Positions 1 to 19,432 of a stretch of DNA of 63,642 nucleotides are shown here, piece by piece. The stretch is taken from NCBI RefSeq assembly GCF_900215215.1, contig NZ_OBDR01000011.1, positions 1-63,642 on the forward strand. The letters run 5' to 3'. The notes under the pieces are model-generated. The model worked only from the letters and a program-made list of their open reading frames with translations. It ran no database searches and was not told where the DNA came from. The number at the start of each line of letters is the position of its first letter. Positions within the stretch are counted from its first letter, which is position 1. Source of the DNA: Methanohalophilus euhalobius (lineage in GTDB: Archaea; Halobacteriota; Methanosarcinia; Methanosarcinales; Methanosarcinaceae). A program made the translations under genes and the position numbers.

Positions 1-92
1 GCAAAAGAGGTCAAGTTCAAATTATTAATCCATAATATAGACAGGGCAACTTCTATTTCAGTAATTATTCAAATGAGGATTTCTACAGAGCC
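1..92 (+). mobile_element. Right end of an IS, same element as at 17171-17765
   Basis: The first 92 bases repeat the 3' part of the IS at 17171-17765, ending in the same terminal repeat (TTTCTACAGAGCC). The window therefore starts inside a second copy, in the same orientation, which encodes the last residues of the transposase. The left part lies outside the window, so it is unknown whether this copy is complete. It has inserted into an epimerase gene, whose reading frame runs into the IS end. Confidence 0.9.
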
Positions 93-400: not shown

Positions 401-3400
401 TTATACAGTAGCATTTTTATTTGCTTCTACTTTCAACCAAAATTTCTCTAGAAACTCCATAACTTTCCCTCTGTTTAATTCTTCATGGCAAAATTGATTT
501 CCATAATTTCTTAAACATCCATAACAACTAGAATTGCCCTCTTTTCCTCCACACGTACATTCTCTCATTTTCGTGTATGTAGTTTTAAAGAGATTGATTA
601 TTGAATCCTGATCTTTCGCAATTCTTTTTACATGCCCTGCACCACCAGGCACATTATCAAATATTAGAAGGGCTAATGAATCTGGTTCTCCAATATAGGG
701 ATATAAACAGCCATCCAGATCTTGTCTTTCAATATCGAAATAAATGCTTGCACCTTCCAATAAACCATAAAGAACAGAATACCAAAATCCCATGTCCCAA
801 TTATCGTAATCTTCAAAGCTTAATTGTAGTACATCCGTTTTGTATTCATGGCCTAAATGGTACCTCATCAAAGTACCTTCACATTCTCCACCCCAAGTAT
901 TTTCATGTGATGTCGGTGCTTTGTCGTTTCCTAAAATAGTGTATCCACATAATGGACAAACTTTAAATCCTTGCCCACCTGCATTATTAACAATCGCTAA
1001 TTTACCATGATTACCTACCATGGCATTTATATTTAAATGACCTAGACTAACTGATAACTCTTTTTCTTTATTCACTTCACCCGAATAATATGTGCGTGTT
1101 GTGTAGGTTTTTTTAGGTTTTTTATTGCCAGGTTTCTTTGGTGGTTTCCTGCTGCTTATGAAGCCAAATTCTGGTACAACGAATGTACCTCTTATACCAG
1201 TATCTAGTGGATAACCACATGAATCACATACAGTTAATCCATCATTTGAAGTTGCTAGCACCCGTTGATACCTATGACATTTTTCACAAATTGCATATTG
1301 ATATTTTGGCCATTCTCTATGAGGTATTTTCTTTAAATATCTACTTTGCCAAAGTTGTCCACCTGCAACGATTTCGCTTCCAGGAGCATATTCTGATAAA
1401 GCCATTCTAAGATCTCTACTTAATTCCAATTTATTTCCTGCATCAGAATGACTTATCAACTGAAGCTCTACAACATCTATGGGGAACCCATACCTGGGAA
1501 TTACGTTATGTGCTGAAAGATAGTTTATCAAAGGGCGTTTTTTAATAGTATTAATCATTCTTAGAAGATAGTCGGATTTTTTTCCTTCACTAATTTTTTT
1601 ATTTCTAGATGTTGACAATATACCTATATCAGATTCGACTTCTTCTTTTGCTTTTAATAATACACCATTATTTTCATCATAAAGACCTGAAACCCATCCC
1701 CAACTATCGAGATTTAATTTTGAATGTAAGTTTTGAGGAACGATTTTTTTAATTGATTCTAACAGATCCTTTGGTTCTGATTCCAGGTATTCCCTTAATT
1801 TTTCGGGCCCGTTTTTATTTGGATTAAAAAAGAAGTCTTCTGTCTTTTTGAACATATCTGAATTCATCATCCAGAATTTAGCAAGTGCTGTTGCATAAAC
1901 ATGTCTTTGAACAATGATTTCATTCTCTATTTCAAAATGAGGTGTACTCACCATACCTGAGACCATCTTTATTGGATCTGCAAAATATGTCATATCATGC
2001 GAACGCCGTCTGCAAAATGTCAATACAAAAGCTGTAGAATCAGTACGTCTCCCAGCTCTTCCTGCCCTCTGTACATAGTTTGATGCTGAGGGAGGAACGT
2101 TTAACAGGAAAACAGATTCTAAATCTCCGACATCAACTCCAAGTTCAAAAGTAGTAGAACAACTAAGGACATTGATATCTCCATTGATAAACCTAGACTG
2201 ATAATCTGCAGCAGTTTCACTACTTAGCTGAGCAGTATGTTCTTCAGCTTTCATCCTCAATGGTTTCAATTCGGAATACAAATTTTTGTAGTGGTCATCT
2301 TCATACATTTCAGAAGGATTACATTTTTCGAGCATTCCATTGCAACGATAGTTTGGACAAATATTTTTCAAATTCAAATGAGTCAGAGTTTTACATTTAT
2401 TGCAGTAGTACCATTGCAATTGGTCTCCATCTTTAATTTGCCACAATTTATGATTGATTTGGAAACCAGTTCCTTCTGAGTTAAGTGCGGTTTCTATCAA
2501 ATGTTTGTCCCATATTAGTTTATTCAATCCTTTTTTCCACATATTTGATAGCAATTCAGTACAATTCTCTTCACAATTTGTTGAATTGATTTTATAGTAT
2601 AATCTTTGAAGAAAATCTAATCTACTATTTAGTCCACCTGAGGGAGTCCAGCCTTTTATGTTTCTATCTTTTGATGAACCCGTATGCCTGAAATATCGTT
2701 TTTGATTTTTGGGTTCAAAAAAGGAATCGTAAGGGTCGATAGAATCAGGAAAAGTAATAGCACCGTAATCCCTGAAGTCATTTAATAATATTTGGTATAA
2801 TGTCCATATTTCATCGTCAGTTAAATTCCATGGGTCTTTTTTTAATGGAGGTGGTGCACACCACTGACTTGGCTTTACTAATTCAAAACCCAGAAATCCC
2901 ATATGTTCTAAACCATTCTTTCCATCAACATTCATTAATTCATACAACAACCATTTCCAAGCTTCATCTTCCAACTGTTGTAGACTTATTGATGGGAATA
3001 AGCTTAGTTCACGTATTTTTTTCTTAAGGGGAATTATAATATCTTCAATTTGCCACTGATTATCAATTATTTTTTGCTTGTTTTCTTCAATAGTTTGTAA
3101 TATGAGATGCCTTCGCAATATTTTAGAGTATGTTCTGTTTAAGAAGGGAGCAAAAAAAGCTGCATCCTGTCTATTATCTGAAAAAATAAGTAATTGCCTT
3201 GAATCTTTTTCCATTATAGATTTTTCAGGCTCATCTTTTATTGTTATCCATTCATTTTCATCATCCTGAGAATCTTTTTCCAAGATATCAACTGTTGATT
3301 CTTTATCAGGTATTTGTTGATATAAAGAAGTAGACAATACACTTGCGATTGCATCTCTGCTTTGCAAAAAGCGAGTTACAACAGAACTCTTAGTATTTGT

Positions 3401-5230
3401 TTTTGAACAAGCAGGACATTTATGCACCATTCCATTTCTAGAGACAACTTTTGTCAAAGGAATATAATCTGCTTCATTACATTCGCAAAGTGAATTAACG
3501 AGATTTATCTTGTCGATTGCTCCACATTTTGGACATAGATAATATTTATCACTTGCTCTATTCTCTATCTCCTCTTCATCTTCATTAATAGGAACTAATT
3601 CAAATTCATTATTCATGAGTAAATAATACTCAAGAGAACTTTCATTTTCATAATATGATTTACTCGGCTGTTTGAGGACATTTTTTCCATCATCATTTGA
3701 CTTTTTACCTACAATGTAGACTGATCCACAATTATGACAATTACCAATTTCAAATACTGGATAATTTATTCCATTTTCTGTTACACATTCCATTCTTTGC
3801 AAAAACAATTGTTTTTTTGGATAAAACCCTACAAAAGCCCCTTCCATCGATTTTATGAATAAATGGTATCTAGCTGGTAAAAGAGGTTGATCATTTGGAT
3901 TATTTCGTGCTTGGTTAGCAATGTCAACTAATGAAACCAAAGTTTCTTCAGAATTACTATTTTTTGAAAATATTTGTTTTGCTGTTTTTGAAAGAACTTC
4001 ACTATTTTTTTCTTCAATTGTTTCTTGTAAGGAGATTAAATTTCGATCACCTTTTAAAATAAAATAAAGAAATTTCTTATAATCTCCATCTGAATCTGCT
4101 TTTGCCTTTTCAATAATCTGTGAAGGCACTTTATGCATCACTGCTGAATTCGCAAGTTGCTCTAATTTATTATCTGAAACATTGGAAAGTATTTCCTGCC
4201 ATTCAGAATATAATTTTTCATTCGGTACACCCCAACATTTCCCAACAATCCTATCTTCATCAATTGCTTTTACTATATCTTCAGTTTCAAATGGTTCACT
4301 GAAAAGACCCGATGCAAATTTAGCAATGTCATCGGGTGTTTCATTCTCATTGCCTAATGTAGCACTTGTAGCAATACATGTTAGGTCATTTGCTCTTGTA
4401 GAAATGCGTTCCTTTAATCGCCGAAGTAACATTGCAGTCTCAATACCCTTTGCACCACTGTAGGTATGGGCTTCATCAACAACTATGAATTTCCAGTTAT
4501 TTGAGAACTCACCATCAAAAAAGACATTGTCTTGAGGTCTTAGAAGTAGATATTCCAACATTGCATAGTTGGTAAGCAAAATATGTGGTGGATTTGCTTT
4601 CATTTCTTCCCTTGATATCAATTCATTTTTCAAGGGTTTTTCTTTATACATCTTTTGGAATAGTTCTTCAGCACTTTTTCTTTTTTCCTCTGTTTCTCCC
4701 GTATAACGTCCAAATGTTATTTCTGGATAATTTGCCAGCAATTTACGAAAACGTTTTAGTTGATCATTTGCAAGTGCATTCATTGGGTAGAGAAGAAGAG
4801 CACGCACTCCAGGATTAAGTGTTCCATGTTTCTTTTGTTCAAACAAGTAGTTTAGTATAGGTATGGTAAACGTTTCGGTTTTTCCACTTCCTGTTCCTGT
4901 TGCAACTACAACATTCCTTTGGTGCTTAACAATTTTTTGAATTGCGTTCTGCTGATGTGAATACAATGGTCTATCAATTGGCAATGAGTTGGAATTTAGA
5001 TTAATGAACTCATCCGATAGTATTCCTTTCTTTACTAGAACATTTAATGTATCTTCTTTTTTAAACGAAGGAGTTGTTTCTAAAATAGGCCCTTTTACAA
5101 AATCTTGTGGTTGCAATTTTGATACGAATTGATTTTGCAAATCAGAGTCACTAAGTTGAAAAATATTTGCAAGATAAGAAGTATATTTATCAGTAATGTA
5201 TTTTGTAGTCTTAATAGGATCAAGTGACAT
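401..5230 (-). CDS. Large DEAH-box helicase with C-terminal DUF1998/MZB domain (YprA/DruE-like)
   Basis: This 1609-residue superfamily 2 helicase has Walker A ATGTGSGKT near residues 110-118, DEAH at 252-255, an ATSATL motif III near 287, and a second RecA domain with QRAGRAGRR. Many CxxC pairs are scattered through the middle, and the C-terminus has the four-cysteine zinc site of DUF1998 (CTCGG then CYGCLRNYGNQFCHEEL). YprA/MrfA-family helicases act in DNA repair, but very large versions are the core of defence systems such as Druantia (DruE) and relatives of DISARM. The start ATG is preceded by GAGGA. It lies 10 bp downstream of the 1059-aa gene and is surely co-transcribed with it. Family is secure; the defence role is inferred from size and context. 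Confidence 0.85.
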   Translation of the reverse strand: MSLDPIKTTKYITDKYTSYLANIFQLSDSDLQNQFVSKLQPQDFVKGPILETTPSFKKEDTLNVLVKKGILSDEFINLNSNSLPIDRPLYSHQQNAIQKIVKHQRNVVVATGTGSGKTETFTIPILNYLFEQKKHGTLNPGVRALLLYPMNALANDQLKRFRKLLANYPEITFGRYTGETEEKRKSAEELFQKMYKEKPLKNELISREEMKANPPHILLTNYAMLEYLLLRPQDNVFFDGEFSNNWKFIVVDEAHTYSGAKGIETAMLLRRLKERISTRANDLTCIATSATLGNENETPDDIAKFASGLFSEPFETEDIVKAIDEDRIVGKCWGVPNEKLYSEWQEILSNVSDNKLEQLANSAVMHKVPSQIIEKAKADSDGDYKKFLYFILKGDRNLISLQETIEEKNSEVLSKTAKQIFSKNSNSEETLVSLVDIANQARNNPNDQPLLPARYHLFIKSMEGAFVGFYPKKQLFLQRMECVTENGINYPVFEIGNCHNCGSVYIVGKKSNDDGKNVLKQPSKSYYENESSLEYYLLMNNEFELVPINEDEEEIENRASDKYYLCPKCGAIDKINLVNSLCECNEADYIPLTKVVSRNGMVHKCPACSKTNTKSSVVTRFLQSRDAIASVLSTSLYQQIPDKESTVDILEKDSQDDENEWITIKDEPEKSIMEKDSRQLLIFSDNRQDAAFFAPFLNRTYSKILRRHLILQTIEENKQKIIDNQWQIEDIIIPLKKKIRELSLFPSISLQQLEDEAWKWLLYELMNVDGKNGLEHMGFLGFELVKPSQWCAPPPLKKDPWNLTDDEIWTLYQILLNDFRDYGAITFPDSIDPYDSFFEPKNQKRYFRHTGSSKDRNIKGWTPSGGLNSRLDFLQRLYYKINSTNCEENCTELLSNMWKKGLNKLIWDKHLIETALNSEGTGFQINHKLWQIKDGDQLQWYYCNKCKTLTHLNLKNICPNYRCNGMLEKCNPSEMYEDDHYKNLYSELKPLRMKAEEHTAQLSSETAADYQSRFINGDINVLSCSTTFELGVDVGDLESVFLLNVPPSASNYVQRAGRAGRRTDSTAFVLTFCRRRSHDMTYFADPIKMVSGMVSTPHFEIENEIIVQRHVYATALAKFWMMNSDMFKKTEDFFFNPNKNGPEKLREYLESEPKDLLESIKKIVPQNLHSKLNLDSWGWVSGLYDENNGVLLKAKEEVESDIGILSTSRNKKISEGKKSDYLLRMINTIKKRPLINYLSAHNVIPRYGFPIDVVELQLISHSDAGNKLELSRDLRMALSEYAPGSEIVAGGQLWQSRYLKKIPHREWPKYQYAICEKCHRYQRVLATSNDGLTVCDSCGYPLDTGIRGTFVVPEFGFISSRKPPKKPGNKKPKKTYTTRTYYSGEVNKEKELSVSLGHLNINAMVGNHGKLAIVNNAGGQGFKVCPLCGYTILGNDKAPTSHENTWGGECEGTLMRYHLGHEYKTDVLQLSFEDYDNWDMGFWYSVLYGLLEGASIYFDIERQDLDGCLYPYIGEPDSLALLIFDNVPGGAGHVKRIAKDQDSIINLFKTTYTKMRECTCGGKEGNSSCYGCLRNYGNQFCHEELNRGKVMEFLEKFWLKVEANKNATV

Positions 5231-5240
5231 CCATAATTCC

Positions 5241-8200
5241 TCATAACTTTATGTTTTTAATTTTCTGTTGAATAGATTTCAATGTCGGATCATTTTGAAA
5301 TGTTTTGTGTTGTATTAATGATCCCAGTTCTCTAGCAATATCATTAAATTCATTAATCTTATTCAAATGTTTTATTATCTGATTGAAATCAATATTTTCT
5401 TTATTTAATCTCATCAAAGAAGCAAAGTACATCTTTTTATTTTGATAATTTTCAATAAACATATACGTTAATATTTTTAAAAAAACTTTATTAGAAAATA
5501 AATCAAATCTTTGTTGTTTTGCTTTTAACAATAAATGATTGATAATTGTAAAACATTCACTATTTAGTAAATCAGTTTTTGTGAAAAATAAATCATCAAA
5601 TACATTTATTGCTTCTTCAATTTCTTTGTCAGCCAATATGTTTAATTTGTGTAACCATAAACTTTTGAGATGGTCATTTTTACGATATGCATCTTTTAAG
5701 AGACTTATACCATCGATATATCTGGCTTCATCGTAGTATTTATTAAATTCTTCAAGAGGTTTTTCATTATCGATATCAATAAGAATTTCTTTACTATTCG
5801 GAATATTTTCCCCTGGAAATACCAATGGAGTCCATCCATCTGATTTTGTAAAATGAAGCAAGTATCTACCAATTTGAATATCACTTTCAGTCATTTCAAA
5901 AGTAATAGGACTTCTTTTATTATCGATATTTTCTTGATGTAACAGTTTTTCATGGCCTGACCCTAGTTTCCAGAAAGCTAATGTTTTATCCTTAGTGGTT
6001 CCTTCTTCAGACCATTCAATTTTAAAAATACGTTTGTCCTCTTTTTTGTCTATATAATGTCTAATGTTGCTTATTTTCCATTTCTGAACGCCAAATAAAT
6101 CGACATCTTCTATATTATCGTTTCCATAAACATCAAAACTAAAATTCATGATACTTTTTTCATTGGATCTTATTGTATCAGAAAACTTCGATAAATCAAA
6201 TTTACAGATTCCTTTTCTTAATATCGTTTCCTCATATTGTTTTGTAGGTCCTAATTCCAACTTACATTTTCCATTTATTTCAGGGAATAAATTTACAATT
6301 AATATGGGGTTGGAATCTGAATCAAATAGCACTTCTTCTTCAACTTCAACATAATCACTGAATTCTGATTCGTATTTTCGATTATTTAGACCTTCAATAC
6401 TCCATTTCAATTTTGGCATATGAAATTCAACAGGTATTTGTATAGGACTTTTAACATCGACAAATATTCTAAAATTTTCTTTTAGATAATCTTCTGATGA
6501 AGTTGTTTGCAAGTGATAATCGGTGTTATTTATTTGTTTGACTATATTTTTTGAGCCAATAGGTACAATTTCAGAAGTTTTCAAATACAAATTTATTTCA
6601 TATGGACCATCAGTTTGTGGTATATATATTCCTCTATCAAATTCAAAACTAATAGGAGGAATGAAAACTACGTTAAATTCGTAATCTATACCTTCTATAT
6701 CATTTGTTATTCTTATATCGAAGTTGCCTACAGCATTATTTCCAAGTAATGACTCATCAGATAGTGGAATTACACAGGTTGAATCATCTGGATATTCTAA
6801 AATATTTTCATAATCATTAAGTTTGGAATAGATGGGTTTTTGAAGTGTGGTTTCTCCACGATATGTAATATATAGATTCCAATCAGCACTATCAAGAGAA
6901 TTTTCAGTTTGTATTTTTATAGATGGAAGTTCGCCAGAGTAAACTGGATTGCCATTAGAAGTGACAGAATTCAATAAATTCCCATTAACAAGTTTAGGCT
7001 TTAAATTCCTCTTTTCTGACACTGGTAGATGAAGACGATTCAGCTCTTTATCTTCTATAAAAAGGGGTTTTTCTGTATCTTGAATATTTACTGCAAAATA
7101 TCTATATCCAAACCAACTCCCAAATAGGTCTCCTTTCTCAAAGATCAAAGATTCTGGCTTTAAATCATATTGTTTTTCTGCAACGACTATTATTGTATCT
7201 TGTGGTAATGTTTCTTTTTGTATTATTTTTTTACTGTCATATTCAAAAGCAAATAGAAGGCTATCTGTATGAAAACTACTTTCAAAGTCCCAACTTTGGA
7301 GTCTTTTACTTCCATTTAGTAACCTGAAAAAATACCTAGTTGCAGGGAATTTTAGTTTTATCTTTTTCTCTTCAGTTTCAATGTAGCTACCGTTGCGATA
7401 AGCAGAAATTTTTTCTTTATAGATGTTATTCTGTTCATCACTGATTTCTAATATAACCTTATTTATGTATTCATCAAAGATAGTTTGCTGTGGCAACACT
7501 AAAACTAAATCATCTTTATAATCAAATTTAATAATTGGTTGTCTAAACCTTCCGTGTTTGTTTATTGAAGTTGTACTATTGCTACTGGTTTTTGTAATAT
7601 TTTGAGGATTATTCCACCAAACTATAAATGCATCTATAATTCGTTCTGATAATTCAATATTGTCTTTTTTTTGTGAAAGTGTTCCTTTTTGGCCAAATTC
7701 TAGCATCAAATAGGAGTTATAAAAAAAGCAATCTGCTATTTCATTTCCATATAACAAAAATCTCCTTATTGATTCACTAATATACGGAAAAGCTTGTGGG
7801 ATTGAATTTAGATTTTCTTGGTCTGAGATTGATAGTTTCTTTTTATTTATGAGTCTAGACGAACCCTTTTCATTTATCCTTAATCTTTGATTGTTATAAG
7901 CCCTTTGTTTATTTAGATAAAACTTAATCCCTTCATAATCCGTACTGGGCAATTCGTCTTTCCTTTTAATTAGGACTTGGTCAAAATACTCTTCCAAATT
8001 TGAATTTGGGATCATTCCATGGATTAATATGTTTGAAACATATCTGAATGCACTTGGAATACTGAATTTTGGCAAATTATTTTCATGTAAATATGAAAAA
8101 AACAATTTTCCAATATTTGTTTTTTGAATAGCATCCAACTTTCCGATACTTTCTTCTACACTAGACCAAAAATCACCATTTTCTGAATTATATTCATATA

Positions 8201-8420
8201 TCCCTTTCCATACTAAAAAATGAGATACAGAAGCCTTTGCATATTGCTTTAAGTACTTTATCCCTCTAATAGATAAGTGCTGTTTTATCAAATTGCCTAT
8301 ATGTTCTACCTCTTGAGGAGTAAGAACATTTTCGCCTATCAAGGTTATATTTTGTGTTCTATTATGCAATATCTTTTCACATTCTGCTATTTTAGAACAA
8401 TTTTCAATCATATCAAGCAC
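5241..8420 (-). CDS. 1059-aa protein, probable partner of the DUF1998 helicase (DruH-like candidate)
   Basis: No catalytic motif is evident. Roughly residues 1-200 are helical, the middle (about 230-800) is strongly beta-rich and looks like consecutive beta-sandwich modules, and the last 200 residues are helical and repeat-like. There is no signal peptide or membrane segment. It lies directly upstream of the helicase with a 10-bp gap, so the two form one operon. A very large protein of unknown fold beside a DUF1998 helicase is the layout of Druantia type III (DruH-DruE); that match is inferred from arrangement and size, not from a sequence comparison. The start may be GTG at 8420 or ATG at 8411; neither has a strong ribosome site. 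Confidence 0.6.
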   Translation of the reverse strand: MLDMIENCSKIAECEKILHNRTQNITLIGENVLTPQEVEHIGNLIKQHLSIRGIKYLKQYAKASVSHFLVWKGIYEYNSENGDFWSSVEESIGKLDAIQKTNIGKLFFSYLHENNLPKFSIPSAFRYVSNILIHGMIPNSNLEEYFDQVLIKRKDELPSTDYEGIKFYLNKQRAYNNQRLRINEKGSSRLINKKKLSISDQENLNSIPQAFPYISESIRRFLLYGNEIADCFFYNSYLMLEFGQKGTLSQKKDNIELSERIIDAFIVWWNNPQNITKTSSNSTTSINKHGRFRQPIIKFDYKDDLVLVLPQQTIFDEYINKVILEISDEQNNIYKEKISAYRNGSYIETEEKKIKLKFPATRYFFRLLNGSKRLQSWDFESSFHTDSLLFAFEYDSKKIIQKETLPQDTIIVVAEKQYDLKPESLIFEKGDLFGSWFGYRYFAVNIQDTEKPLFIEDKELNRLHLPVSEKRNLKPKLVNGNLLNSVTSNGNPVYSGELPSIKIQTENSLDSADWNLYITYRGETTLQKPIYSKLNDYENILEYPDDSTCVIPLSDESLLGNNAVGNFDIRITNDIEGIDYEFNVVFIPPISFEFDRGIYIPQTDGPYEINLYLKTSEIVPIGSKNIVKQINNTDYHLQTTSSEDYLKENFRIFVDVKSPIQIPVEFHMPKLKWSIEGLNNRKYESEFSDYVEVEEEVLFDSDSNPILIVNLFPEINGKCKLELGPTKQYEETILRKGICKFDLSKFSDTIRSNEKSIMNFSFDVYGNDNIEDVDLFGVQKWKISNIRHYIDKKEDKRIFKIEWSEEGTTKDKTLAFWKLGSGHEKLLHQENIDNKRSPITFEMTESDIQIGRYLLHFTKSDGWTPLVFPGENIPNSKEILIDIDNEKPLEEFNKYYDEARYIDGISLLKDAYRKNDHLKSLWLHKLNILADKEIEEAINVFDDLFFTKTDLLNSECFTIINHLLLKAKQQRFDLFSNKVFLKILTYMFIENYQNKKMYFASLMRLNKENIDFNQIIKHLNKINEFNDIARELGSLIQHKTFQNDPTLKSIQQKIKNIKL

Positions 8421-8650
8421 TTTTCCATTTAGAGTTTAAATTTTAGTTGTATGTACCTACAGTTTGATTAATTTACATATAAATGTAACGATTTAAATCT
8501 GTGATATCAGAATAATAAATAATCCGACTACAAACCTTTGCGGTTTATATCTTATATTGCATACCTACCCCACCTTCCATCAATTCACATAAATTTATCT
8601 ATCAGTAAAGAAATATGTTTGTTAAAATATATGGTAAGTGGGGATGAAGA
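8421..8650. promoter_or_regulatory. Divergent promoter region between helicase operon and TPR gene
   Basis: This 230-bp AT-rich spacer separates the two divergent units. On the plus side there are TATA-like tracts ATAAATTTATC near 8589 and TTAAAATATATGG near 8622, then GGGATGAAG just before the ATG at 8651. The second tract is only about 25 nt from the ATG and would give a nearly leaderless mRNA; the first allows a short leader. On the minus side the sequence is AT-rich without one clear TATA box. No inverted repeat long enough to call an operator was seen. Confidence 0.4.
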
Positions 8651-11233
8651 ATGACATTAATTGAGAATCTGCAATCAAGTGCACAAACAGGATATTATAC
8701 AAAATTGATTTTGAATACAGGGAATGAAATAGAAGGATATATCGATACTATTACTTCTGATTCTCTCATTTTAACTAATGAAGACAATATAGCGGGAATA
8801 AAATATGATGCTATAATATTATGGCAATTGTTTCCAAACAGCTGTTGTAATGAAGAAATTGTTGAACAAGATACTTCTACAAGCAATGATTCTGAAGATG
8901 TTGAAAATGAAAATAACTCATTTTATGAAAATGAGATTGTGAAAAAGATAGATGCCTTTGCAAAAAATGACTCTATTATCACTTATCTTCATCCCAAAGA
9001 TCAACCAATTACTCAGGTGCCAGATATATTAAAAGTTTCAGAGGATGATGAGAAATCAATATGGGATAGTATTTTTTCAAAATACCAGAATGCAATAAAG
9101 CAAGATGATAGGGAAAAAATAGAGTCTCTCTCAATAGAACTAGAAAAACTAAGTGACCAATATCCAGAATGTGCTACCATTGCCTATAGTACTGGTTGCC
9201 TTAAATTAAAAGCACATAACTACCCTGATGCAGGAAAATATTTCGATAGAACATTTGAAATTGATAATAGCAAAGATTCCCTATACAACGCTATTTTTTG
9301 TCATCTTGTTGCAGGTGATGAAGAGAAAGCACTAGTTGATATTGCAAAGTATTTCTACGAAGGAAAAACAATATCTCATGATAAACTGTTTTTTGAGTTT
9401 GTTATATTAAGCCGAAATCAGCATGAATATGCATTATTCTTAGAAATTATCCAGAGTATCCTTAATGAAATAGATTCTGATGAAGAATTCCGTGAACAAC
9501 TTTCATTGCTTGTAGGATCGACGATATATACGCTCCAGGATACCAATATACCTAACGATTACGTTTCCGATCTAAACACATTGGCCAAATCTGCTGTAGA
9601 AAATATTGAAATTGAGTCGTACATAGATATTATCAACGATATTAATGACGAATTGAAAAATTCGGAGGCTGGAAATCAAAACGAGGAATTCAATAGATGG
9701 CTGACCACTGATAAATCTGAAGTGACTGATCAGCAAGATGAGCAACTCCCAATAAATGAAGAACAACAAAACGATAATGAAAATGTTGATGATGATAAAA
9801 CAGATTTTGAACATAACTATCTATATCCAAAATTCACATTTGGATTAAAGAAGGGTATAATATACCGCTTTATCCCAGTTGCACATAACGGAAACATCGG
9901 ATATGGATTTATGGAGGATAGTCAATCAAAGAAGGAAGTTCATTTCAGAAATGATTCAATTATCGGAAATATTCATTTAAACACTCTCTCAGAGAATATT
10001 CCAGTGTTGTATAAATCAATTCTTTCAAAGGAAATAGAAGCTTCTGTTGATTATACAGCGTCGGTAGTAATCTCTATAGATATGCTGGACAATCTATGGG
10101 ATTTAGCCACCCATTTTGCACATGAAAAAGATTATCGTAGTGCATTACTGGAAATTGAAACGATTTTGCAATATGATCCAGATAATAATGAAGCTCAGGA
10201 TAAAAAGAAACGATGGACGAATCTCTACAATAAACATTCAACTCCATATGATAAAATAAAGCTGAATCCAAATACTGAAAAGGAGTGGGAAGATTATGGA
10301 AATTGTATGATTGATAGAAAGATGTTTGCAGAGGCAATTCATGCTTTCACACATATATCTGGTAATCCAAATAAATCAAGTTCATGGTATAATAAGGGTA
10401 TTTCATACCTGCATAATTTGAACTATGATGATGCAATTGAACATTTTAATACTGCAATTGAGAAAAATAAGTATTACTATCATGCAATTTTTGCCCGTGG
10501 GTTGGCCTACTTGAGAGATGAGCAGTTTGAAATGGCATTGAAAGATTTTGATGCTACTCTTAAGTTACGTCCTGATTATGTGCCTGCTTGGTCACATCGT
10601 GCTCTTGCCATGCAGTTTTTAGACAATAATATAGAAGCAGAGAAGAGTTATAATTGGGCACTTTTACTCGATGAAAACAACTGGACCATACGTGCTTGGA
10701 AAGCAGGTTTGTTAATTAGAATGAATAAGATCGTTGAAGCAATGAAAATTATAGATGATGTACTTGAAAATCATCAACCTAAAAATGCTGCTATTCTTTT
10801 TGCGAAAGGCTACGCATTGCAGAAGCAAAATCATTATTCAGAAGCTTTGGACTATATCGAGAAAAGCCTGGAGATTGAACCTGATAATATCAAGGCATTG
10901 ACAAAAAGGGCTTATGTAATTGCTTGTCTTGGAGAATATGATAGAGCCAAGGATGCTATAACAGAGGCGATATCCAAAAAGAAAACAAATTCAAAATCAT
11001 GGTATTATAAAGGTGTTATAAATTATATGTCAGGTAATTATACAGCAGCACATGAAGCATTTAAACAATCTTTGGAATTAAAACCTGATGTATCTCGGGT
11101 AATTCATTGTAAAAATAAAGCAAAAAGAAAAATGGAATCTGCTAATCGAGCTAATAATGCTAAAGGGCAGGAATTGGAAGGTATAATTGGTCAAATTAAT
11201 GATAAGTTTGGAGGATTGGGATTTCATGAATGA
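8651..11233 (+). CDS. TPR protein with LSm-like N-terminus and cold-shock-like middle domain
   Basis: This 860-residue cytosolic protein has three parts. Residues about 15-60 (KLILNTGNEIEGYIDTITSD and after) fit an Sm/LSm-like beta-barrel. An acidic linker follows, then a segment near 395-480 with GIIYRF...GNIGYGF...KEVHFRND, the strand pattern of a cold-shock OB fold. From about 490 to 830 are tandem tetratricopeptide repeats; helical repeats also occur before the linker. Two RNA-binding-type folds joined to a TPR scaffold suggest an RNA-linked assembly factor or sensor. It is divergent from the helicase operon and convergent with the ATPase operon (23-bp gap), so its link to either rests on position only. 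The TPR call is secure; the small domains are fold-level guesses. Confidence 0.7.
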   Translation: MTLIENLQSSAQTGYYTKLILNTGNEIEGYIDTITSDSLILTNEDNIAGIKYDAIILWQLFPNSCCNEEIVEQDTSTSNDSEDVENENNSFYENEIVKKIDAFAKNDSIITYLHPKDQPITQVPDILKVSEDDEKSIWDSIFSKYQNAIKQDDREKIESLSIELEKLSDQYPECATIAYSTGCLKLKAHNYPDAGKYFDRTFEIDNSKDSLYNAIFCHLVAGDEEKALVDIAKYFYEGKTISHDKLFFEFVILSRNQHEYALFLEIIQSILNEIDSDEEFREQLSLLVGSTIYTLQDTNIPNDYVSDLNTLAKSAVENIEIESYIDIINDINDELKNSEAGNQNEEFNRWLTTDKSEVTDQQDEQLPINEEQQNDNENVDDDKTDFEHNYLYPKFTFGLKKGIIYRFIPVAHNGNIGYGFMEDSQSKKEVHFRNDSIIGNIHLNTLSENIPVLYKSILSKEIEASVDYTASVVISIDMLDNLWDLATHFAHEKDYRSALLEIETILQYDPDNNEAQDKKKRWTNLYNKHSTPYDKIKLNPNTEKEWEDYGNCMIDRKMFAEAIHAFTHISGNPNKSSSWYNKGISYLHNLNYDDAIEHFNTAIEKNKYYYHAIFARGLAYLRDEQFEMALKDFDATLKLRPDYVPAWSHRALAMQFLDNNIEAEKSYNWALLLDENNWTIRAWKAGLLIRMNKIVEAMKIIDDVLENHQPKNAAILFAKGYALQKQNHYSEALDYIEKSLEIEPDNIKALTKRAYVIACLGEYDRAKDAITEAISKKKTNSKSWYYKGVINYMSGNYTAAHEAFKQSLELKPDVSRVIHCKNKAKRKMESANRANNAKGQELEGIIGQINDKFGGLGFHE

Positions 11234-11256
11234 AATATTTTATATAAGAAACTACA

Positions 11257-12963
11257 TTAGTTACCCGTATCTAGCGAACCAGGAGTTAAATCAATTACAT
11301 TTTTATTTATTTTCATTTCTAAGGGTTTTTTATTTATTAACCCAAAAATTGTTTTATCGAATTTTAGTTTTTTGTTATCAATAAATGTTGTTAGTTTTTC
11401 TTTTTTATCTCTATTTTCTAAATCATGCAAACCTATTATTTCCCAACATTCCTCCATATCTAATTGTTTTAATTCTACAACATAAGAATAATCTTTGCTT
11501 TTACTATGAATTAATTTTTTAACATTATTATTTATTCTTTTTTCTATACCTTCGATTAAATTGTTACTAAGTACAATAAATATAGCTTCATTTATTTGGT
11601 TGTTTGTTAATGCAGCAAATATAGCCCTTATTTTATCATGATTGGACTTATTATCTAAAAGAAATTGAAATCCAATAGTATGTGCTTTATAATGAACCAA
11701 CAAATCTATATTTTCAAATTTCAAATCATAGTGATTACGGTTTTTTATGAACACATGTTTGTCGCTTTCATTTATCCCAAAATTAGAGTTTAATAACTTA
11801 AGATAATTACTGAATGAATCTATCAATAATTCAGAGCTAATATTTGTATATTTTTTTGCATTATACCTTATGCCCTCTATTTCTGCTGTTTTCACTTTTG
11901 CATCCAAGAGATTATCTAATTTATTTTGTAATTCTTGATTTTTACCGTAGTTAACAAAATAAGTAGAAAAACGTCTGACAACTTCGGCTGCATCGTGTTT
12001 ATTCACAATAAGGTTATTTATGTCATTTGATTTACAACTAAATATTTTCTCATTCAATGCTAATGAACAAGCCATTGAGATATCACCTGGTACACTCCCC
12101 AATTCCCAAAATAATTCGATTGCTTCTTCAGTGAATGGAAAAGTATTGACTCCATTAGCATTACAAGAGTCTATACAAGGAAGTTGAATATTTCCATTTC
12201 TTTTCGACCAGAGTTCCATAAATTTATGAACCATTTTTTTTGAATCCTCAAAATCAAACCTATCTAAAATAATAGGCTCTCCATTTTTATCTGTTACAAA
12301 AGAAAATCTTCTTCCTTGTGATGTATCCTTTAAACTTTCTTTTAAATCTGTATATAAATCACGTGTTATAGCAAAAACAACACATGTATTACTCAAATCG
12401 TTAAAAAGTGACATTATAGTTCCTAACAAATTTCTTATTATTACCCGCTTATTTCCTTTTCCACTTGATTCCATTTTCCTTACATACTCATCTACAGAAT
12501 CTATCAATAGGCAAAACCCAATTTTGTTATTTCTATTATCAACTCTAATTTTGGTCATCAATTCTTGCATTTGTTTTAAATTTCTTTCTGAATTATTATA
12601 ATCGACTAAATCATAATTATATTTTTTAAAAAAAGAATTTACACTTTCATTTTTGAGTATATAATTTGTTAAATCATCATCAGATATTGTTTTATCTTTT
12701 AAATCTAATATCATTGACAATCTATTATTTTTCTTTTTTGAAACGTAATCTATATAATGCAACATTTGTGTTTTGCCTACACCTGGATGACCAATTACAC
12801 ATGTCATTATCGAATTTATCATTGCCATATTGTAAATTCGATTTTCAAAATCGGATAAGTAATTCTCAGCTAATTTGCCTATCAATATCTTTCCTGTATT
12901 TGAATTTGTACGATGAATTTTAAAAGGCCTGTCACTTCTTAAAAGATTACAATATTTGCACAT
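11257..12963 (-). CDS. P-loop (AAA/STAND-like) ATPase, 568 aa, second of a pair
   Basis: Walker A GHPGVGKT lies near residues 58-65 and Walker B CLLIDSVDE near 151-159. The segment before Walker A (ILIGKLAENYLSDFENRIY) resembles the lead-in of Orc1/Cdc6-like and STAND ATPases. The protein begins with CKYC. The C-terminal half (about 330-568) is alpha/beta and lysine-rich and may hold a sensor or nuclease-like fold that I cannot name. It is the last gene of a three-gene operon, 19 bp after a clearly related ATPase, which suggests duplication and a hetero-oligomer. Its tail faces the TPR gene. ATPase assignment is firm; function is unknown and defence is inferred from the island. Confidence 0.7.
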   Translation of the reverse strand: MCKYCNLLRSDRPFKIHRTNSNTGKILIGKLAENYLSDFENRIYNMAMINSIMTCVIGHPGVGKTQMLHYIDYVSKKKNNRLSMILDLKDKTISDDDLTNYILKNESVNSFFKKYNYDLVDYNNSERNLKQMQELMTKIRVDNRNNKIGFCLLIDSVDEYVRKMESSGKGNKRVIIRNLLGTIMSLFNDLSNTCVVFAITRDLYTDLKESLKDTSQGRRFSFVTDKNGEPIILDRFDFEDSKKMVHKFMELWSKRNGNIQLPCIDSCNANGVNTFPFTEEAIELFWELGSVPGDISMACSLALNEKIFSCKSNDINNLIVNKHDAAEVVRRFSTYFVNYGKNQELQNKLDNLLDAKVKTAEIEGIRYNAKKYTNISSELLIDSFSNYLKLLNSNFGINESDKHVFIKNRNHYDLKFENIDLLVHYKAHTIGFQFLLDNKSNHDKIRAIFAALTNNQINEAIFIVLSNNLIEGIEKRINNNVKKLIHSKSKDYSYVVELKQLDMEECWEIIGLHDLENRDKKEKLTTFIDNKKLKFDKTIFGLINKKPLEMKINKNVIDLTPGSLDTGN

Positions 12964-12982
12964 GTACCCAATTTCCTTATTC

Positions 12983-14584
12983 TCATATTTTTGAGGGTTT
13001 AGTAACCATCAAGCTTTTAAGATATCTTGCCATTTTTAATTTATTGTCAATGTAGTTAAATAATTTCTTTCTTTCCTTTATGTTATTCATCTTTTTCACT
13101 CCAATTATTTGTTCAATATCATTTGATGTCAATCTTTTTGATCCAAGGGTGGGTGTATAGTCTATATTTTTATTTCTAAAATATCTACTAATTTCTATAA
13201 ATTCATTTTCATATATTAAAAAATCTTTATCTTTATATTCATCATACTCTTCATCTGTAATATATATAAATAAACAGGCATTTGAAATTCCTTTGAGCAA
13301 ATTATTTGCCACAGATTTGAAATCTATTTTCGGAATTTTAGTCCCATCTACAAATTTTAGTTCCACCTCTTTTTTGTTGCCGTCAATAGTATATCCTACA
13401 AACAAACCCCTTTCACCACTATTAATTGAAAATTCTAATGATAAAAAGTAATCTTTGAATGATTCATATAATATACCTTTATCTTTAAATTGCCAATTCT
13501 GATTTCCAATAAAATCTTTCAATAAACTTTCATATTCGTCTTTTTTAGTGATGTAATCTATATTATTCCATAATTTTTCTCTGTAATCTAAAGTTGGATC
13601 TGACTTGTTTTTCAAAAGAATTGTAGCCATTTCATATTCAGATATTTTTAATGATTTTTCTTTTGTTGTGGTATCATTATATTCATAAACTTTTTTATTT
13701 AAACATTGGCTACAAATTTTTGTTAAACTCCCAGGAGTCGAGGCAACTCGCCAAGCTAAATAGATTGCTTCTTTTGAAAAAGGATAATTTCCGAAATCAA
13801 TCTCTTCCAAATTGTTCCTTTTAGCCCATTCTTTCATTGAAACAGTTACAAGCTCATATGCTTCCTTTTCTTTTAATGATCCAAATTCTATAGGTTTGTC
13901 ATCAATTCCATTTGGTACCAAGATTCTACGACGTAAGGTCTGATCCCCGCTTATAACATCACGAAAAATATGATACACATCTTTCGTCAAGGCAAAGATT
14001 ACAGCAGTATTATCAAAGGTATCTAAAATTAATCTATATGTTCCTAGTAAATCTACTACAGCTTTATCGCTTTCTACATTTTTTAAATCAACTATTTTTC
14101 TTATACATTCATCGACAGTATCAACACCGATAAATAATCCAAAATCTTTCCAATCTTCTTTTGCTCTAGAAAGTAAATAATTAATTTCCTGTTTTTTGTC
14201 GTCATAATTTTCCCCCTTAAGTACGACGTTATATTTTTCAGCCAGATCTACAAAATGAGTGTTTGTGTATATACTTTGAAGTATTTGTTCTGTTGTGGGG
14301 ATTTTATCCTTTAAATTAAATATGACTACTATCCCATTTTTTGATTTTTCAATATTTGTCCTATATTCTAAATTCCACAAAAAATGTGTTTTACCTGTTC
14401 CTGGATTTCCAACAATCGCTGTCATCAAAGAGTCAACTAAACATGTTTCAAAAACTTTGTCCATCAGGGATTTTAACTCTGTAGCCTTTGTGCCAACTAA
14501 TAATGACTTGTTATATGGATTTGAATTATGGAACGAAAATGGTGGGTCCTGCTGTAGAGCTTCCACGAATGATGAAGTTTTCAA
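12983..14584 (-). CDS. P-loop (AAA/STAND-like) ATPase, 533 aa, first of a pair
   Basis: Walker A GNPGTGKT lies near residues 59-66 and Walker B LFIGVDTVDE near 150-159, with a sensor-1-like AVIFALTKDVY segment further on. Overall order and spacing match the next gene, including a VGTKATELKSLMDKVFE lead-in, so the two are paralogues. The C-terminal half differs more and is rich in acidic and aromatic residues. It starts 4 bp after the stop of the 430-aa gene, so expression is coupled. Paired ATPases of this size occur in several multi-gene defence and plasmid-partition systems. I do not recognise this exact family. Confidence 0.7.
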   Translation of the reverse strand: MKTSSFVEALQQDPPFSFHNSNPYNKSLLVGTKATELKSLMDKVFETCLVDSLMTAIVGNPGTGKTHFLWNLEYRTNIEKSKNGIVVIFNLKDKIPTTEQILQSIYTNTHFVDLAEKYNVVLKGENYDDKKQEINYLLSRAKEDWKDFGLFIGVDTVDECIRKIVDLKNVESDKAVVDLLGTYRLILDTFDNTAVIFALTKDVYHIFRDVISGDQTLRRRILVPNGIDDKPIEFGSLKEKEAYELVTVSMKEWAKRNNLEEIDFGNYPFSKEAIYLAWRVASTPGSLTKICSQCLNKKVYEYNDTTTKEKSLKISEYEMATILLKNKSDPTLDYREKLWNNIDYITKKDEYESLLKDFIGNQNWQFKDKGILYESFKDYFLSLEFSINSGERGLFVGYTIDGNKKEVELKFVDGTKIPKIDFKSVANNLLKGISNACLFIYITDEEYDEYKDKDFLIYENEFIEISRYFRNKNIDYTPTLGSKRLTSNDIEQIIGVKKMNNIKERKKLFNYIDNKLKMARYLKSLMVTKPSKI

Positions 14585-14588
14585 AAAA

Positions 14589-15860
14589 TCAACTCTTAAG
14601 GAATTTTATATAGTAATATCTGTTTTTCCCTGTATCAATCCATCCAGCATCTGTTTCACCAATTGGAGTTCCAACTTCTAAATCAACAAAATTCTGTTCA
14701 AAACATTGTAAAACGAAGGAATCAAATTTATCTGCTGATATGTTCATTTTTTTGCATACTGCCTCTTTTAATGGAGGTATTTTAATTGAATACTGTAAAT
14801 TGTTGTTTAAATTCATAGCTTCTGCATGTAAGACAGAATAAAATGAATTGATATCTATGTCCCATTCTATTCTTTTTGTAATATTGAGCAAGTAATCAAG
14901 AGTAACTATATTTAGTCCATCTCTTAGGATATCGATATCATTAAACCCTTGTGAATTAAGTTGTGACTTTAATTGATAAAACGTATCAGATCTGAGAATT
15001 CCACTTTGATCTAATCTATTTTTATTTATTTCTTTTAGTAACTTTCCTGTATTCTTAACATTACAATATTCGTCTAATTTTCCTTCTGTTTTATTTAGGA
15101 TATTCTGTTGGAAGACTTTTTGTTCATCCATTTTTTTATCTAAATTGCTTAGTAAAGATGCTAATTCAGATATTATATGCTGTTGCTGATTAATTTCCTG
15201 CTTCATCAATATTATTTCTGATTTTAGCGATTTTACTTCACTAGCTAATTGTGCTGTATTTTTTGATTTAGCATTACTTTTCTTATTTGGCAATGTGGTA
15301 TCAATTGCTTTCTTTAAATTATCTTTAGATATTTTCTCATTCCCAATTAACTGTTCTATTTTATTTTTTATCGTTTTTATATCATCATTTTCCTCTATGT
15401 CAATTCCTAATTCTTTTGCAATTATTATCAAATCATCCTTCTTTTTTAATGAATTTATTTTTGCATACATCGACCACATACAAGCTTTATTGTATATTAT
15501 TTCAGAATCCAATGTGTTTTTTAGTATCCATACCTTTATTGTCTCTATGATCCCTTCTTTTTTTTCTTTTGATTCGAATCGTCTTCGTTTGTCTATGGGA
15601 ACACTTTTTAAAATCTTGTCTTTTGAGAGGGAACTTAAAATAGGATATATTTGGAAATATTTTGTTAAAAGAAAGAGCTTGTTTAAATCATCTGTAGTAT
15701 TTGAATTAATAATTTCGTCAACTATCTCTTTTTTTGACAAATTTTTAATTTCGTTTTTTACGCCGACATCTTTAGCCATTTTAGAAAGAGATTCATCATC
15801 TAATTTTTTTATTTGTCTTTTTAATTCGTCAGTATTAGGTACATTGGAATTCTCGCTCAT
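14589..15860 (-). CDS. Coiled-coil protein with Rho-N/SAP-like helical repeats and winged-helix-like C-terminus
   Basis: This is the first gene of the ATPase operon. The N-terminal 60 residues (LKRQIKKLDDESLSKMAKDVG, then KKEIVDEIINS) and a second unit near 150-190 (KKDDLIIIAKELGIDI) look like short two-helix Rho-N/SAP/HeH modules, often nucleic-acid binding. A long coiled coil follows (about 210-265), then a C-terminal domain of 130 residues whose helices and final hairpin resemble a winged helix. I prefer ATG at 15860 over a TTG 21 bases upstream. It may be the DNA-binding or adaptor subunit serving the two ATPases; this is inference. Confidence 0.65.
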   Translation of the reverse strand: MSENSNVPNTDELKRQIKKLDDESLSKMAKDVGVKNEIKNLSKKEIVDEIINSNTTDDLNKLFLLTKYFQIYPILSSLSKDKILKSVPIDKRRRFESKEKKEGIIETIKVWILKNTLDSEIIYNKACMWSMYAKINSLKKKDDLIIIAKELGIDIEENDDIKTIKNKIEQLIGNEKISKDNLKKAIDTTLPNKKSNAKSKNTAQLASEVKSLKSEIILMKQEINQQQHIISELASLLSNLDKKMDEQKVFQQNILNKTEGKLDEYCNVKNTGKLLKEINKNRLDQSGILRSDTFYQLKSQLNSQGFNDIDILRDGLNIVTLDYLLNITKRIEWDIDINSFYSVLHAEAMNLNNNLQYSIKIPPLKEAVCKKMNISADKFDSFVLQCFEQNFVDLEVGTPIGETDAGWIDTGKNRYYYIKFLKS

Positions 15861-16144
15861 ATTTATTCTATTATCTATCAAATTATTTATTTATTGTCCT
15901 TTTAAAGTAGTCTAAGCTTTACTCATAAAAAGAATTTCATTTAGATTAGTTAATTACGTGTATATACAACAAAATTAGGTAGGATAAATTGATGAAACAA
16001 ATACATGAGTATATCGAATGTTTTTGAATATATTTTTTGAAAAATAGCAAGCACAAAATTATAGTACAGAGATTTCCGATTAACCCCTCTTCTCAGTCAA
16101 ACTAAATAACAATATTTATATTTAATTAAGATAAATTTAGTTAT

Positions 16145-17137
16145 ATGAGTACCTTTAGTAATTTCACCCTGAAACAGGAATATGACCGTTTGATAGCTGC
16201 TGGTGACAAACTATCCGAAATAGACAAGTTGATCAACTGGAAACCATTTCGTACCATACTGGAATCTATGTATATCAACAGGACAGACAAAGGTGGTCGA
16301 CCTGAAAATGATGTTGTAATGATGTTCAAAATGCTTGTGTTACAACAATGACATGGTCTTTTTTGATCCAGAACTTGAACGACAATGCATTGATCGTATT
16401 TCATTCAGAAAGTTCCTGGGTCATGTTGAATCAGAGATTTAACAGGAGTTGCAGATTTTCAATCTGCAACATTTTCCAAAACGAATACCTGATGACACAA
16501 CTGTATGGTCATTCAGGGAGAGGATTGCAAAATTGGAACTGGAAGAACAAATATGGGGAGAACTACAAAGACAGATTGATTGTAGAGGATTGGAAATTAA
16601 AAAGGGAATGATTCAGGATGCAACCTTTATTGTTGCAGAACCAGGACATGCCAATCAGGAGAAAATGAGAGGTGATGAGGCAAAAACAAGAAGAAGCAGG
16701 GATGGGAATTGGTCAAAAAAAGGTGGCAAATCATATTTTGGGTACAAACTGCATACGATTATTGATAAGGAGAATGAGTTGATTCGAAGGTTTGAAACGA
16801 CTGTGGCATCAGTACATGATTCACAGGTGGATCTGTCCGAAGAGGGAGAAGTGGAGTATAGGGATAAGGGATATTTCGGAGTGGCGGCAAAGGGATTTGC
16901 AGCAACGATGCAAAGAGCTGTAAGAGGAAAACCATTGAATATCAAGCAGATTATGACAGGATTAGTGTACAGAGGATGCCCTGTGAAAGGGTGTATGCGG
17001 TGACAAAAGGCGTATTCAAAGCGGGAAAAGTGATGGTTACGACAGTGAAACGAGTAAATCTAAAAATGATGGTGACGGCGTTTTGTTTCAATTTGCATCA
17101 AATGAGGACGTTAAAAAGAAAAGGGGTGATGGCCTGA
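16145..17137 (+). pseudogene. IS5-type transposase, broken by frameshifts and a 46-bp insertion
   Basis: Read across frames it gives a nearly complete IS5-family DDE transposase: MSTFSNFTLKQEYDRL at the start, RPENDVVMMFKMLVLQQ, then FPKRIPDDTTVWSFRER, then VASVHDSQVD and YRDKGYFG, and a last part ending LKRKGVMA at 17137. Lesions seen: a frameshift and stop near 16349, an inserted 46-bp double hairpin at 16425-16470 with an in-frame TAA, and a frame change near 16960. It cannot make active enzyme. Terminal repeats of the element were not clear; the left end is probably near 16075-16090, and the right end may have been overrun by the IS at 17171. Confidence 0.85.
16425..16470 (+). repeat. 46-bp double-hairpin element, copy 1
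   Basis: It consists of an 8-3-8 hairpin (GTTGAATC, AGA, GATTTAAC), a 4-nt linker AGGA, and a 10-3-10 hairpin (GTTGCAGATT, TTC, AATCTGCAAC). It interrupts the IS5-type transposase between the codons for LGH and FPKR. CAT stands on both sides (the second CAT uses the last base of the element), which may be a 3-bp target duplication. Taking out 48 bases rejoins the frame. Confidence 0.85.
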
Positions 17138-17170
17138 GAGCGGAAGCTATCTAAAAATAAGTAGAAATTC

Positions 17171-17765
17171 GGCTCTGTAGAAACCCTTTCCTCTAACTTC
17201 CACTAATACATTATTATTTTTATAAGAAGAGGTCCCCAATGTGATTTTAACCACAAAAACACAAAGGGGATGAATGTGTTTTGTTCCAGATTGGAAATCT
17301 GGAACTCCCATTAAATCTGTGATTTAATGGCATGTCAAGCGATTACTTAAACTTTATCGATACAGCTATGTCTGTAGCTGGAAGATCCCGTCTTCCAATC
17401 TATAGTTGTAAATATTCCAAACGAAAATATACTCAACATCAGTTACTGACATTGGTATTGATTAAAGAGTATACAGGTAATGACTATAGAGCAGAAGCCA
17501 TCATACCTGTAAGATGTCGAAAAAGGAAGAAGATCAAAGGAAAATACCGTCGTAAAATGAGAGATGAGTTTGATGAGGACATCTATCATTACAGAAACCT
17601 GGTAGAGACGATGTTTTCTGTTTTGAAAAGGAAATATGGGGAAGAACTGAAGGCAACAAAATACAGAAATCAGGCAAAAGAGGTCAAGTTCAAATTATTA
17701 ATCCATAATATAGACAGGGCAACTTCTATTTCAGTAATTATTCAAATGAGGATTTCTACAGAGCC
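17171..17765 (+). mobile_element. Internally deleted IS (about 595 bp) with 13-bp inverted repeats
   Basis: The ends are GGCTCTGTAGAAA at 17171 and its exact complement at 17753-17765. Inside are the start and end of a transposase gene with the middle missing, so the element is a non-autonomous, MITE-like derivative that would need a full copy elsewhere. Its right 91 bases are repeated at the window start in the same orientation, so the two copies bracket the helicase/ATPase island as direct repeats. No target duplication was obvious. Confidence 0.8.
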
Positions 17766-17781: not shown

Positions 17782-18036
17782 GGTATACCAGGGAAGATTT
17801 GAAAAGAAATCTGAACGATGTTGTCATCTATTGTTGTCGGTTTTACTTCCCTGGTGTATATAAAAGATGGTTTTCTTTTTATAAAGGATTATGTGAAAAG
17901 TTGATTTTTTGCAGATTTTCATATGCGCATAGTCTTCCATTGCTAGCATCAACTTGATGTATGAAAAAAGGATTAACTATTCAAAGTAAACAATCAAAAA
18001 TTGTAGTTAGTAATAGGACTATCTATAAATTTTGAG

Positions 18037-19409: not shown

Positions 19410-19432
19410 AATGCGTCCCTATGCATATCATC

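What the first reader, a model, noticed from the sequence alone, without database searches (positions are those of the whole stretch)
401..15860. Possible new multi-gene defence island with a DruE-like helicase
A 1609-aa DUF1998 helicase plus a 1059-aa partner form one operon, and a coiled-coil protein with two related ATPases forms another; an RNA-binding-type TPR protein lies between them. The first pair recalls Druantia type III in size and order, but the ATPase operon and the TPR gene are not part of the known Druantia. The block lies between two direct copies of one IS and next to other ruined mobile genes.
Basis: partly seen in the sequence, partly recalled or inferred. Interest (0 to 1): 0.75.

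Follow-up and report, generated by a model that had tools for sequence, protein, structure and literature searches.

The report
Archaeal Druantia III-B defence gene pair
Two of the six genes form an archaeal copy of a known two-gene antivirus system (Druantia type III, the branch without a built-in nuclease) that standard search models only half recognise; the other four genes are unrelated neighbours, so this is a new member of a known kind rather than a new six-gene defence machine.

Summary
The genes are real and at the stated places, but they are not one system. The 1609-aa helicase (401-5230) and the 1059-aa protein (5241-8420) are DruE and DruH of Druantia type III, in the nuclease-less 'III-B' branch. 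Of 78 related loci with a single-ORF DruE, across Bacteria and Archaea, 69 have a homologue of the 1059-aa protein upstream in the same direction, nearly always adjacent. A Mycolicibacterium member has four functionally essential DruE residues at the published M. smegmatis positions, so the experimentally proven M. smegmatis DruHE system belongs to the same clade. PADLOC and NCBIfam DruH models miss this whole DruH branch; profile-profile alignment links it to E. coli-type DruH (E 2e-7), and a predicted structure shows the same helical / Ig-like / helical layout. The helicase is distant from the genome's own YprA repair helicase. The TPR gene and the ATPase operon occur in none of the 84 DruHE loci examined; the TPR gene stands alone in relatives, and the ORC/Cdc6-like ATPase pair with its coiled-coil partner is almost unique. 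The left 'IS copy' is 92 bases at a contig end. The segment is a low-GC block where synteny breaks at the 3' end of tRNA-Glu.

The parts
401..5230 (-). DruE (P0001, 1609 aa): YprA-family SF2 helicase of Druantia III-B; GTGSGKT 112-118, DEAH 252-255, SAT 289-291, AGRAGR 1056-1061, MZB/DUF1998 1489-1573; ends after MZB, no C-terminal nuclease domain
5241..8420 (-). DruH of the III-B branch (P0002, 1059 aa; homologues begin at Met4, so the start is probably 8411): helical N region 1-280, Ig-like beta array 296-880, helical C region 886-1055; lacks the 200-500-aa coiled-coil insert of its closest relatives
8651..11233 (+). TPR-repeat protein (P0003, 860 aa), divergently transcribed; Sm-like N-terminus and a cold-shock-like stretch read by eye only; not part of the Druantia system
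11257..12963 (-). ORC/Cdc6-type AAA+ ATPase (P0004, 568 aa), paralogue of P0005; not part of the Druantia system
12983..14584 (-). ORC/Cdc6-type AAA+ ATPase (P0005, 533 aa); AAA+ domain modelled well for residues 80-220, C-terminal part not resolved
14589..15881 (-). Coiled-coil protein (P0006; likely start ATG at 15860), SAP-like motifs read by eye; first gene of the ATPase operon
16150..17169 (+). Defective IS5-group element, broken transposase frames; bounds are those of the match to other copies
17170..17765 (+). Second IS5-type element, about 0.6 kb, transposase of 149 aa; its last 92 bases recur at 1-92
1..92 (+). Right-end fragment of the same IS at the contig end
93..258 (-). Start of a sugar-nucleotide epimerase-like gene (MKSKKPILITGGDGFIGKS..., named by eye), cut by the IS fragment
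18036..18111 (-). tRNA-Glu (CTC); homology to five sister species stops exactly at its 3' end, so 1-18035 is strain-specific DNA there

Best explanation
Window 401-8420 is a two-gene Druantia type III antivirus system of the nuclease-less III-B branch, carried by a methanogen of the Methanosarcinaceae. P0002 is DruH and P0001 is DruE. Most likely mechanism, transferred from the studied relatives: DruH, with its helical ends and Ig-like array, senses a late viral structural protein and changes its assembly state; it then recruits or licenses DruE, an ATP-driven SF2 translocase, onto ssDNA-containing viral intermediates, which blocks circularisation or replication of the viral DNA and ends the infection. 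Because this DruE has no nuclease domain, any cutting would have to come from DruH or from host nucleases. Shown here: gene identity, pair conservation, clade, intact helicase motifs, shared fold layout. Inferred: the sensing, activation and DNA steps, and that it is active in this host. The TPR gene and the ATPase operon are separate neighbours.
For: DruE identity: PADLOC DruE models 646 bits (DruE1) and 571 (DruE3); a proven-clade mycobacterial DruE scores alike, 613/582, so PADLOC type numbers do not separate the branches. Tree: P0001 is sister to the helicases of G012 and UBA203, inside the DruH-linked clade, away from III-A, ARMADA and the host YprA. DruH identity: the same pair in G012, G088, G180, G176; iterative HMM finds the P0002 family upstream of DruE in 69 of 78 loci over many phyla. 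Link to experiment: in L122 (Mycolicibacterium) DruE residues K119, A292, A1016, C1516 stand at the positions published for M. smegmatis DruE (1667 aa; L122 has 1668), and correspond to P0001 K117, A290, A1059, C1558 (PMC13316683). Homology to E. coli-type DruH: hhalign probability 93.6%, E 2.1e-7 over P0002 30-589, collinear; N part alone 1.4e-4, Ig part alone 1.9e-4, reversed control 0.29. Structure: pLDDT 82, helical / Ig-like / helical, matching Ig arrays and MG domains in the PDB; DruH has helical ends and three Ig-like domains by cryo-EM (PMC13192584). Bell et al. describe a Druantia III-like branch whose helicases mostly lack a nuclease (PMC12458937).
Against: No PADLOC or NCBIfam DruH model hits P0002, even weakly; but they also miss the mycobacterial DruHs of the clade. 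Profile similarity to III-A DruH covers only the first 55% of P0002. The M. smegmatis link rests on residue positions and length, as its sequence was not at hand. Closest relatives carry a coiled-coil insert that this copy lacks, so it could be altered or inactive. Nothing was tested at the bench. Six loci have no detected DruH partner.
Confidence: 0.9

Rival explanations
1. All six genes form one new composite defence system in which the TPR protein and the ATPase operon serve the helicase pair.
For: Same low-GC block, close packing and a shared synteny break at tRNA-Glu. Composite Druantia-like systems exist; TALON adds a TPR-CSD gene (PMC12458937). L081 and L118 have other genes between DruH and DruE.
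Against: None of P0003-P0006 has a homologue in the 84 DruHE loci; P0003 orthologues stand alone in six relatives; three convergent or divergent units, not one operon.
Confidence: 0.04
2. P0004-P0006 are a second, independent and undescribed defence or mobile-element module: an ORC/Cdc6-like AAA+ pair plus a coiled-coil protein with possible DNA-binding motifs, placed beside Druantia by island clustering.
For: Tight three-gene operon; duplicated AAA+ paralogues; ORC/Cdc6-type fold; weak match of P0004 to PDC-M25A, E 1.6e-5; patchy distribution.
Against: Almost no relatives to show that the three genes travel together: one partial match at a contig end (G335:C48), none in plasmids, phages or viral contigs. 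AAA+ of this type also serve replication and partition.
Confidence: 0.35
3. The helicase is a DNA-repair helicase of the YprA/MrfA type and the 1059-aa protein a repair partner.
For: Shared SF2 core and MZB domain.
Against: About 765 aa separate motif III from the AGRAGR motif, the long insert region of defence YprA proteins (PMC12458937). Host YprA is separate and remote. DruE-type PDB entry 254 bits against MrfA 72.
Confidence: 0.01
4. The pair is a degraded or inactive remnant of Druantia III-B kept by chance near IS elements.
For: DruH lacks the coiled-coil insert of its nearest relatives; a sister species keeps only a 38-residue DruH fragment beside IS-like DNA; defective IS next to the block.
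Against: Both frames are fully open with intact helicase motifs; coil-less DruHs are the norm in actinobacteria and also occur in L057 and G176.
Confidence: 0.07

Closest known systems
Druantia type III of Mycolicibacterium smegmatis, MSMEG_1253-1254 (PMC13316683), taken as type III-B
   Same: Two adjacent codirectional genes, DruH then DruE; DruE of about 1.6 kaa ending soon after DUF1998 with no nuclease; essential residues K, A, A, C conserved.
   Different: Archaeal host; DruE about 35% identical to actinobacterial members; DruH about 15% identical in alignment.
Druantia type III-A of E. coli (DruH/YjiT 1096-1119 aa, DruE about 2110 aa; PMC13192584; PDB 9tud, 9tu7)
   Same: Gene order, DruE helicase core, DruH N-region and Ig-like region by profile alignment, overall DruH layout.
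   Different: III-A DruE has two C-terminal PLD domains, absent here; DruH sequence beyond single-model detection.
DruHE pairs of other archaea: G012 (probably Methanohalobium evestigatum, from chromosome length, by memory), UBA203, G180, G176
   Same: DruE 43-57% identical, DruH next to it.
   Different: G012 and UBA203 DruH carry a coiled-coil insert of about 400 aa; G176 has an extra 839-aa SF2 helicase between the two; G180 has a convergent 2046-aa RecQ/DpdF-like helicase fused to a DruH-type N domain.
ARMADA / TALON / DISARM (PMC12458937)
   Same: YprA-family helicase; TALON also has a TPR-CSD protein.
   Different: No BrxHII-like helicase, PglX-like methylase, TBP or NERD nuclease here.

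Membership tests
Druantia type III (DruH-DruE), nuclease-less III-B branch | Two-gene unit, DruH directly upstream of DruE on the same strand | tested here: met
   10 nt apart in the window; same pair in 69 of 78 related loci
Druantia type III (DruH-DruE), nuclease-less III-B branch | DruE: YprA-family helicase with RecA1, RecA2 and DUF1998/MZB, closer to Druantia than to MrfA or ARMADA | tested here: met
Druantia type III (DruH-DruE), nuclease-less III-B branch | Partner homologous to DruH | tested here: met
   hhalign E 2.1e-7 with reversed control 0.29; same family as partners in mycobacteria; fold layout. Single-model search with PADLOC and NCBIfam DruH gives no hit, for this and for mycobacterial members alike
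Druantia type III (DruH-DruE), nuclease-less III-B branch | Same clade as an experimentally proven member | tested here: met
   M. smegmatis essential residues at identical positions in L122 and L097, clade members by tree; indirect, as the M. smegmatis sequence itself was not compared
Druantia type III (DruH-DruE), nuclease-less III-B branch | Protects against viruses | not testable with these tools
   needs expression and infection
Druantia type III-A | Two C-terminal PLD nuclease domains in DruE | tested here: not met
   P0001 ends at 1609, 36 residues after MZB; no nuclease family in Pfam
Druantia type III-A | DruH matched by the DruH3/YjiT models | tested here: not met
   E. coli DruH is matched
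YprA/MrfA repair helicases | Helicase groups with YprA/MrfA | tested here: not met
[quoted passage not shown]
   neither among the six proteins; reference ARMADA loci L047, L049 differ
TOTE / TALON | TPR-CSD with TBP and NERD-type nuclease | tested here: not met
   P0003 has TPRs, CSD only by eye; no TBP or NERD among the six proteins

The most novel reading that the evidence does not exclude
P0004-P0006, a tight operon of two ORC/Cdc6-like AAA+ paralogues and a coiled-coil protein with possible DNA-binding motifs, is an undescribed archaeal defence system that sits beside Druantia III-B and perhaps acts with it.
Probability: 0.12. Interest if true: 0.6.

Novelty: new member of a known kind. 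Interest (0 to 1): 0.35.

Why it matters
It shows that the nuclease-less Druantia III branch, proven so far in a mycobacterium, extends through Bacillota, Chloroflexota and other phyla into methanogens, and that current DruH detection models miss its partner protein, so annotators will record a lone helicase where a whole system exists. The DruH alignment made here (39-69 sequences) would mend that gap. The variable coiled-coil insert and the fusion of a DruH-type N domain to a RecQ/DpdF-like helicase in G180 suggest that this domain is a transferable coupling module, which can be tested.

Tried and rejected
Single-model searches for DruH (PADLOC, NCBIfam, Pfam) gave nothing for P0002 and could have led to a false claim of a new partner; replaced by neighbour survey plus profile-profile comparison. 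Foldseek of P0002 against the PDB (to April 2026) returned tandem Ig/MG proteins, not DruH, which is in the sequence copy (9tud) but was not among the hits listed. Matching published M. smegmatis DruH residues by offset gave at most 6 of 13, no better than chance over about 1100 offsets, and was not used. Viral-contig scans for P0002, the ATPases and P0006 found none; the viral DruE relatives carry neither DruH type by HMM. Plasmid and phage searches for P0002, P0004, P0005 and P0006 were empty. The sister-species backbone next to tRNA-Glu was not found in this genome, so the far side of the insertion could not be placed. The P0005 model is unreliable beyond residue 305.

Full report
What is in the window. 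The window is one complete contig (G000:C21, 63642 bases) of a 1.94-Mb genome; relatives with 1.5-4.2 Mb genomes and a member whose chromosome is 2242317 bases (G012, by memory Methanohalobium evestigatum) point to the Methanosarcinaceae, probably Methanohalophilus (inference). The six reported ORFs are present as stated. They form three transcription units: P0002-P0001 (minus), P0003 (plus), and P0006-P0005-P0004 (minus). GC is 0.30 over 93-15881 and 0.42 over 18112-38000.

Boundaries. The exact direct repeat is 92 bases long, at 1-92 and 17674-17765, because the contig ends there. The right side carries two abutting defective IS5-type elements whose families have about 40 partial matches in the genome; the left fragment cuts the start of an epimerase-like gene. 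In five sister species the sequence is 94-96% identical from window 18036 or 18037 rightwards and stops there, at the 3' end of tRNA-Glu; to the left those species share their own, largely common DNA, of which the window shows no match longer than 150 bases. The block is therefore foreign or strain-specific DNA at a tRNA 3' end, a usual island site (established knowledge). Its left limit is unknown.

The helicase. P0001 has the DEAD domain, helicase C-terminal domain and MrfA Zn-binding domain and scores 646 and 571 bits with PADLOC DruE1 and DruE3. A mycobacterial member of the clade scores 613 and 582, so this ranking does not decide the type. In a quick maximum-likelihood tree of 41 YprA-family proteins P0001 is sister to G012 and next to UBA203 (set of three, SH-aLRT 99), within archaeal and clostridial members, apart from III-A, ARMADA and the host YprA (long branches, no bootstrap, root only by midpoint). 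The genome has its own YprA-like gene on contig C18. In the PDB the best match is 9tu7, a 2108-aa DEAD/DEAH helicase taken here as III-A DruE from its length and its neighbour entry 9tud (DruH), with 254 bits; MrfA has 72.

The partner. No DruH model hits P0002. Yet relatives of P0002 lie directly upstream of relatives of P0001 in G012, G088 and G180, and upstream with one gene between in G176, and an iterative HMM finds the family upstream of DruE in 69 of 78 single-ORF loci fetched by DruE similarity, in Bacillota, Chloroflexota, Actinomycetota, Planctomycetota, Aquificota, archaea and others. In most of them the genes overlap or lie within 40 bases; L081 and L118 have three ORFs between. 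The sample was chosen by DruE similarity (best 80 of 578), so it speaks for this clade only; three of the nine loci without a partner are cut by contig ends.

Link to proven systems. PMC13316683 shows that DruH-DruE of M. smegmatis protects against many phages, needs both genes and the DruE residues K119, A292, A1016 and C1516, blocks phage DNA circularisation and is triggered by a minor tail protein. In L122 (M. xanthum, DruE 1668 aa against 1667) and L097 these four residues fall at exactly these numbers, whereas E. coli DruE has a different spacing; they correspond to P0001 K117, A290, A1059 and C1558. So the proven system belongs to this clade, with the reservation that its sequence was not compared directly. 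PMC12458937 names a Druantia III-like branch (III-B) whose helicases mostly lack a nuclease, as here.

Homology to classical DruH. Profile-profile comparison of 69 P0002-family proteins with seven E. coli-type DruHs gives probability 93.6% and E 2.1e-7 over P0002 30-589 and DruH 35-543, in order. The N region and the Ig region are each supported alone (1.4e-4, 1.9e-4); reversed sequences give 0.29. The AlphaFold2 model (39 sequences, pLDDT 82, pTM 0.48) has a helical N region, a long beta-sandwich array and a helical C region and matches Ig and MG-domain arrays. DruH by cryo-EM has helical ends around alpha/beta domains and Ig-like domains (PMC13192584).

Variation. The nearest relatives (G012, UBA203, several clostridial loci) carry 200-500 residues of heptad-like, Pro/Gly-poor sequence at P0002 position about 190; the window copy has only a short linker, as do actinobacterial members. 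In G180 a convergent 2046-aa protein joins a RecQ/DpdF-type helicase to a DruH-type N domain; in G176 an 839-aa SF2 helicase lies between DruH and DruE.

The other four genes. P0003-P0006 have no homologue in any of the 84 DruHE loci. P0003 has full-length orthologues in several Methanosarcinaceae (39% identity in G013), each without the ATPases or DruHE nearby. The ATPase profile finds one partial match in 393 genomes of the phylum; P0006 finds one weak match in 295; plasmids, phages and viral contigs give none. The AAA+ part of P0005 resembles archaeal Cdc6/Orc1 best (2qby, E 1e-6). What this operon does is open; a replication, partition or defence role is possible.

How it most likely works. 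Shown: identity of the pair, its conservation, intact helicase motifs, no nuclease domain in DruE. Transferred from studied relatives: DruH as sensor of a late structural protein, assembly change, licensing of DruE on ssDNA-containing intermediates, stop of viral replication. Open: which virus protein is sensed, and who cuts DNA, if anyone.

Verdict. A real, probably functional, archaeal Druantia III-B locus; a new member of a known kind. The six-gene system is not supported.

Noticed in passing
window 21278-23254: uvrB is interrupted by one in-frame TAG (22547-22549) between Val423 and Val425; reading TAG as a residue gives a full 658-aa UvrB. In a methanogen group that can decode TAG as pyrrolysine this may be read-through, a nonsense mutation or an error.
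   Followed up: partly
L034:6193-12330 (G180): 2046-aa protein joining a RecQ/DpdF-type helicase to a DruH-type N domain, with a Vsr/DUF559-like stretch before the helicase read by eye, convergent to a DruHE pair.
   Followed up: partly
L037:9738-12674 (G229): 979-aa coiled-coil protein beginning with a DruH-type N domain but without a DruE detected near it.
   Followed up: no
L081:5355-10004 and L118:5363-10007: In two Streptosporangiaceae three ORFs (about 550, 272 and 680 aa) lie between DruH and DruE; a possible expanded III-B variant.
   Followed up: no
L020:9682-9793 (G001): Sister species keeps a 38-residue fragment of DruH (58% identity; 56 adjacent bases 96% identical) next to repeats shared with window 39.7-41.4 kb; trace of a lost Druantia locus.
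   Followed up: partly
window 41510-54216: Long low-GC run of glycosyltransferase, epimerase and polysaccharide genes, a second strain-variable-looking region.
   Followed up: no
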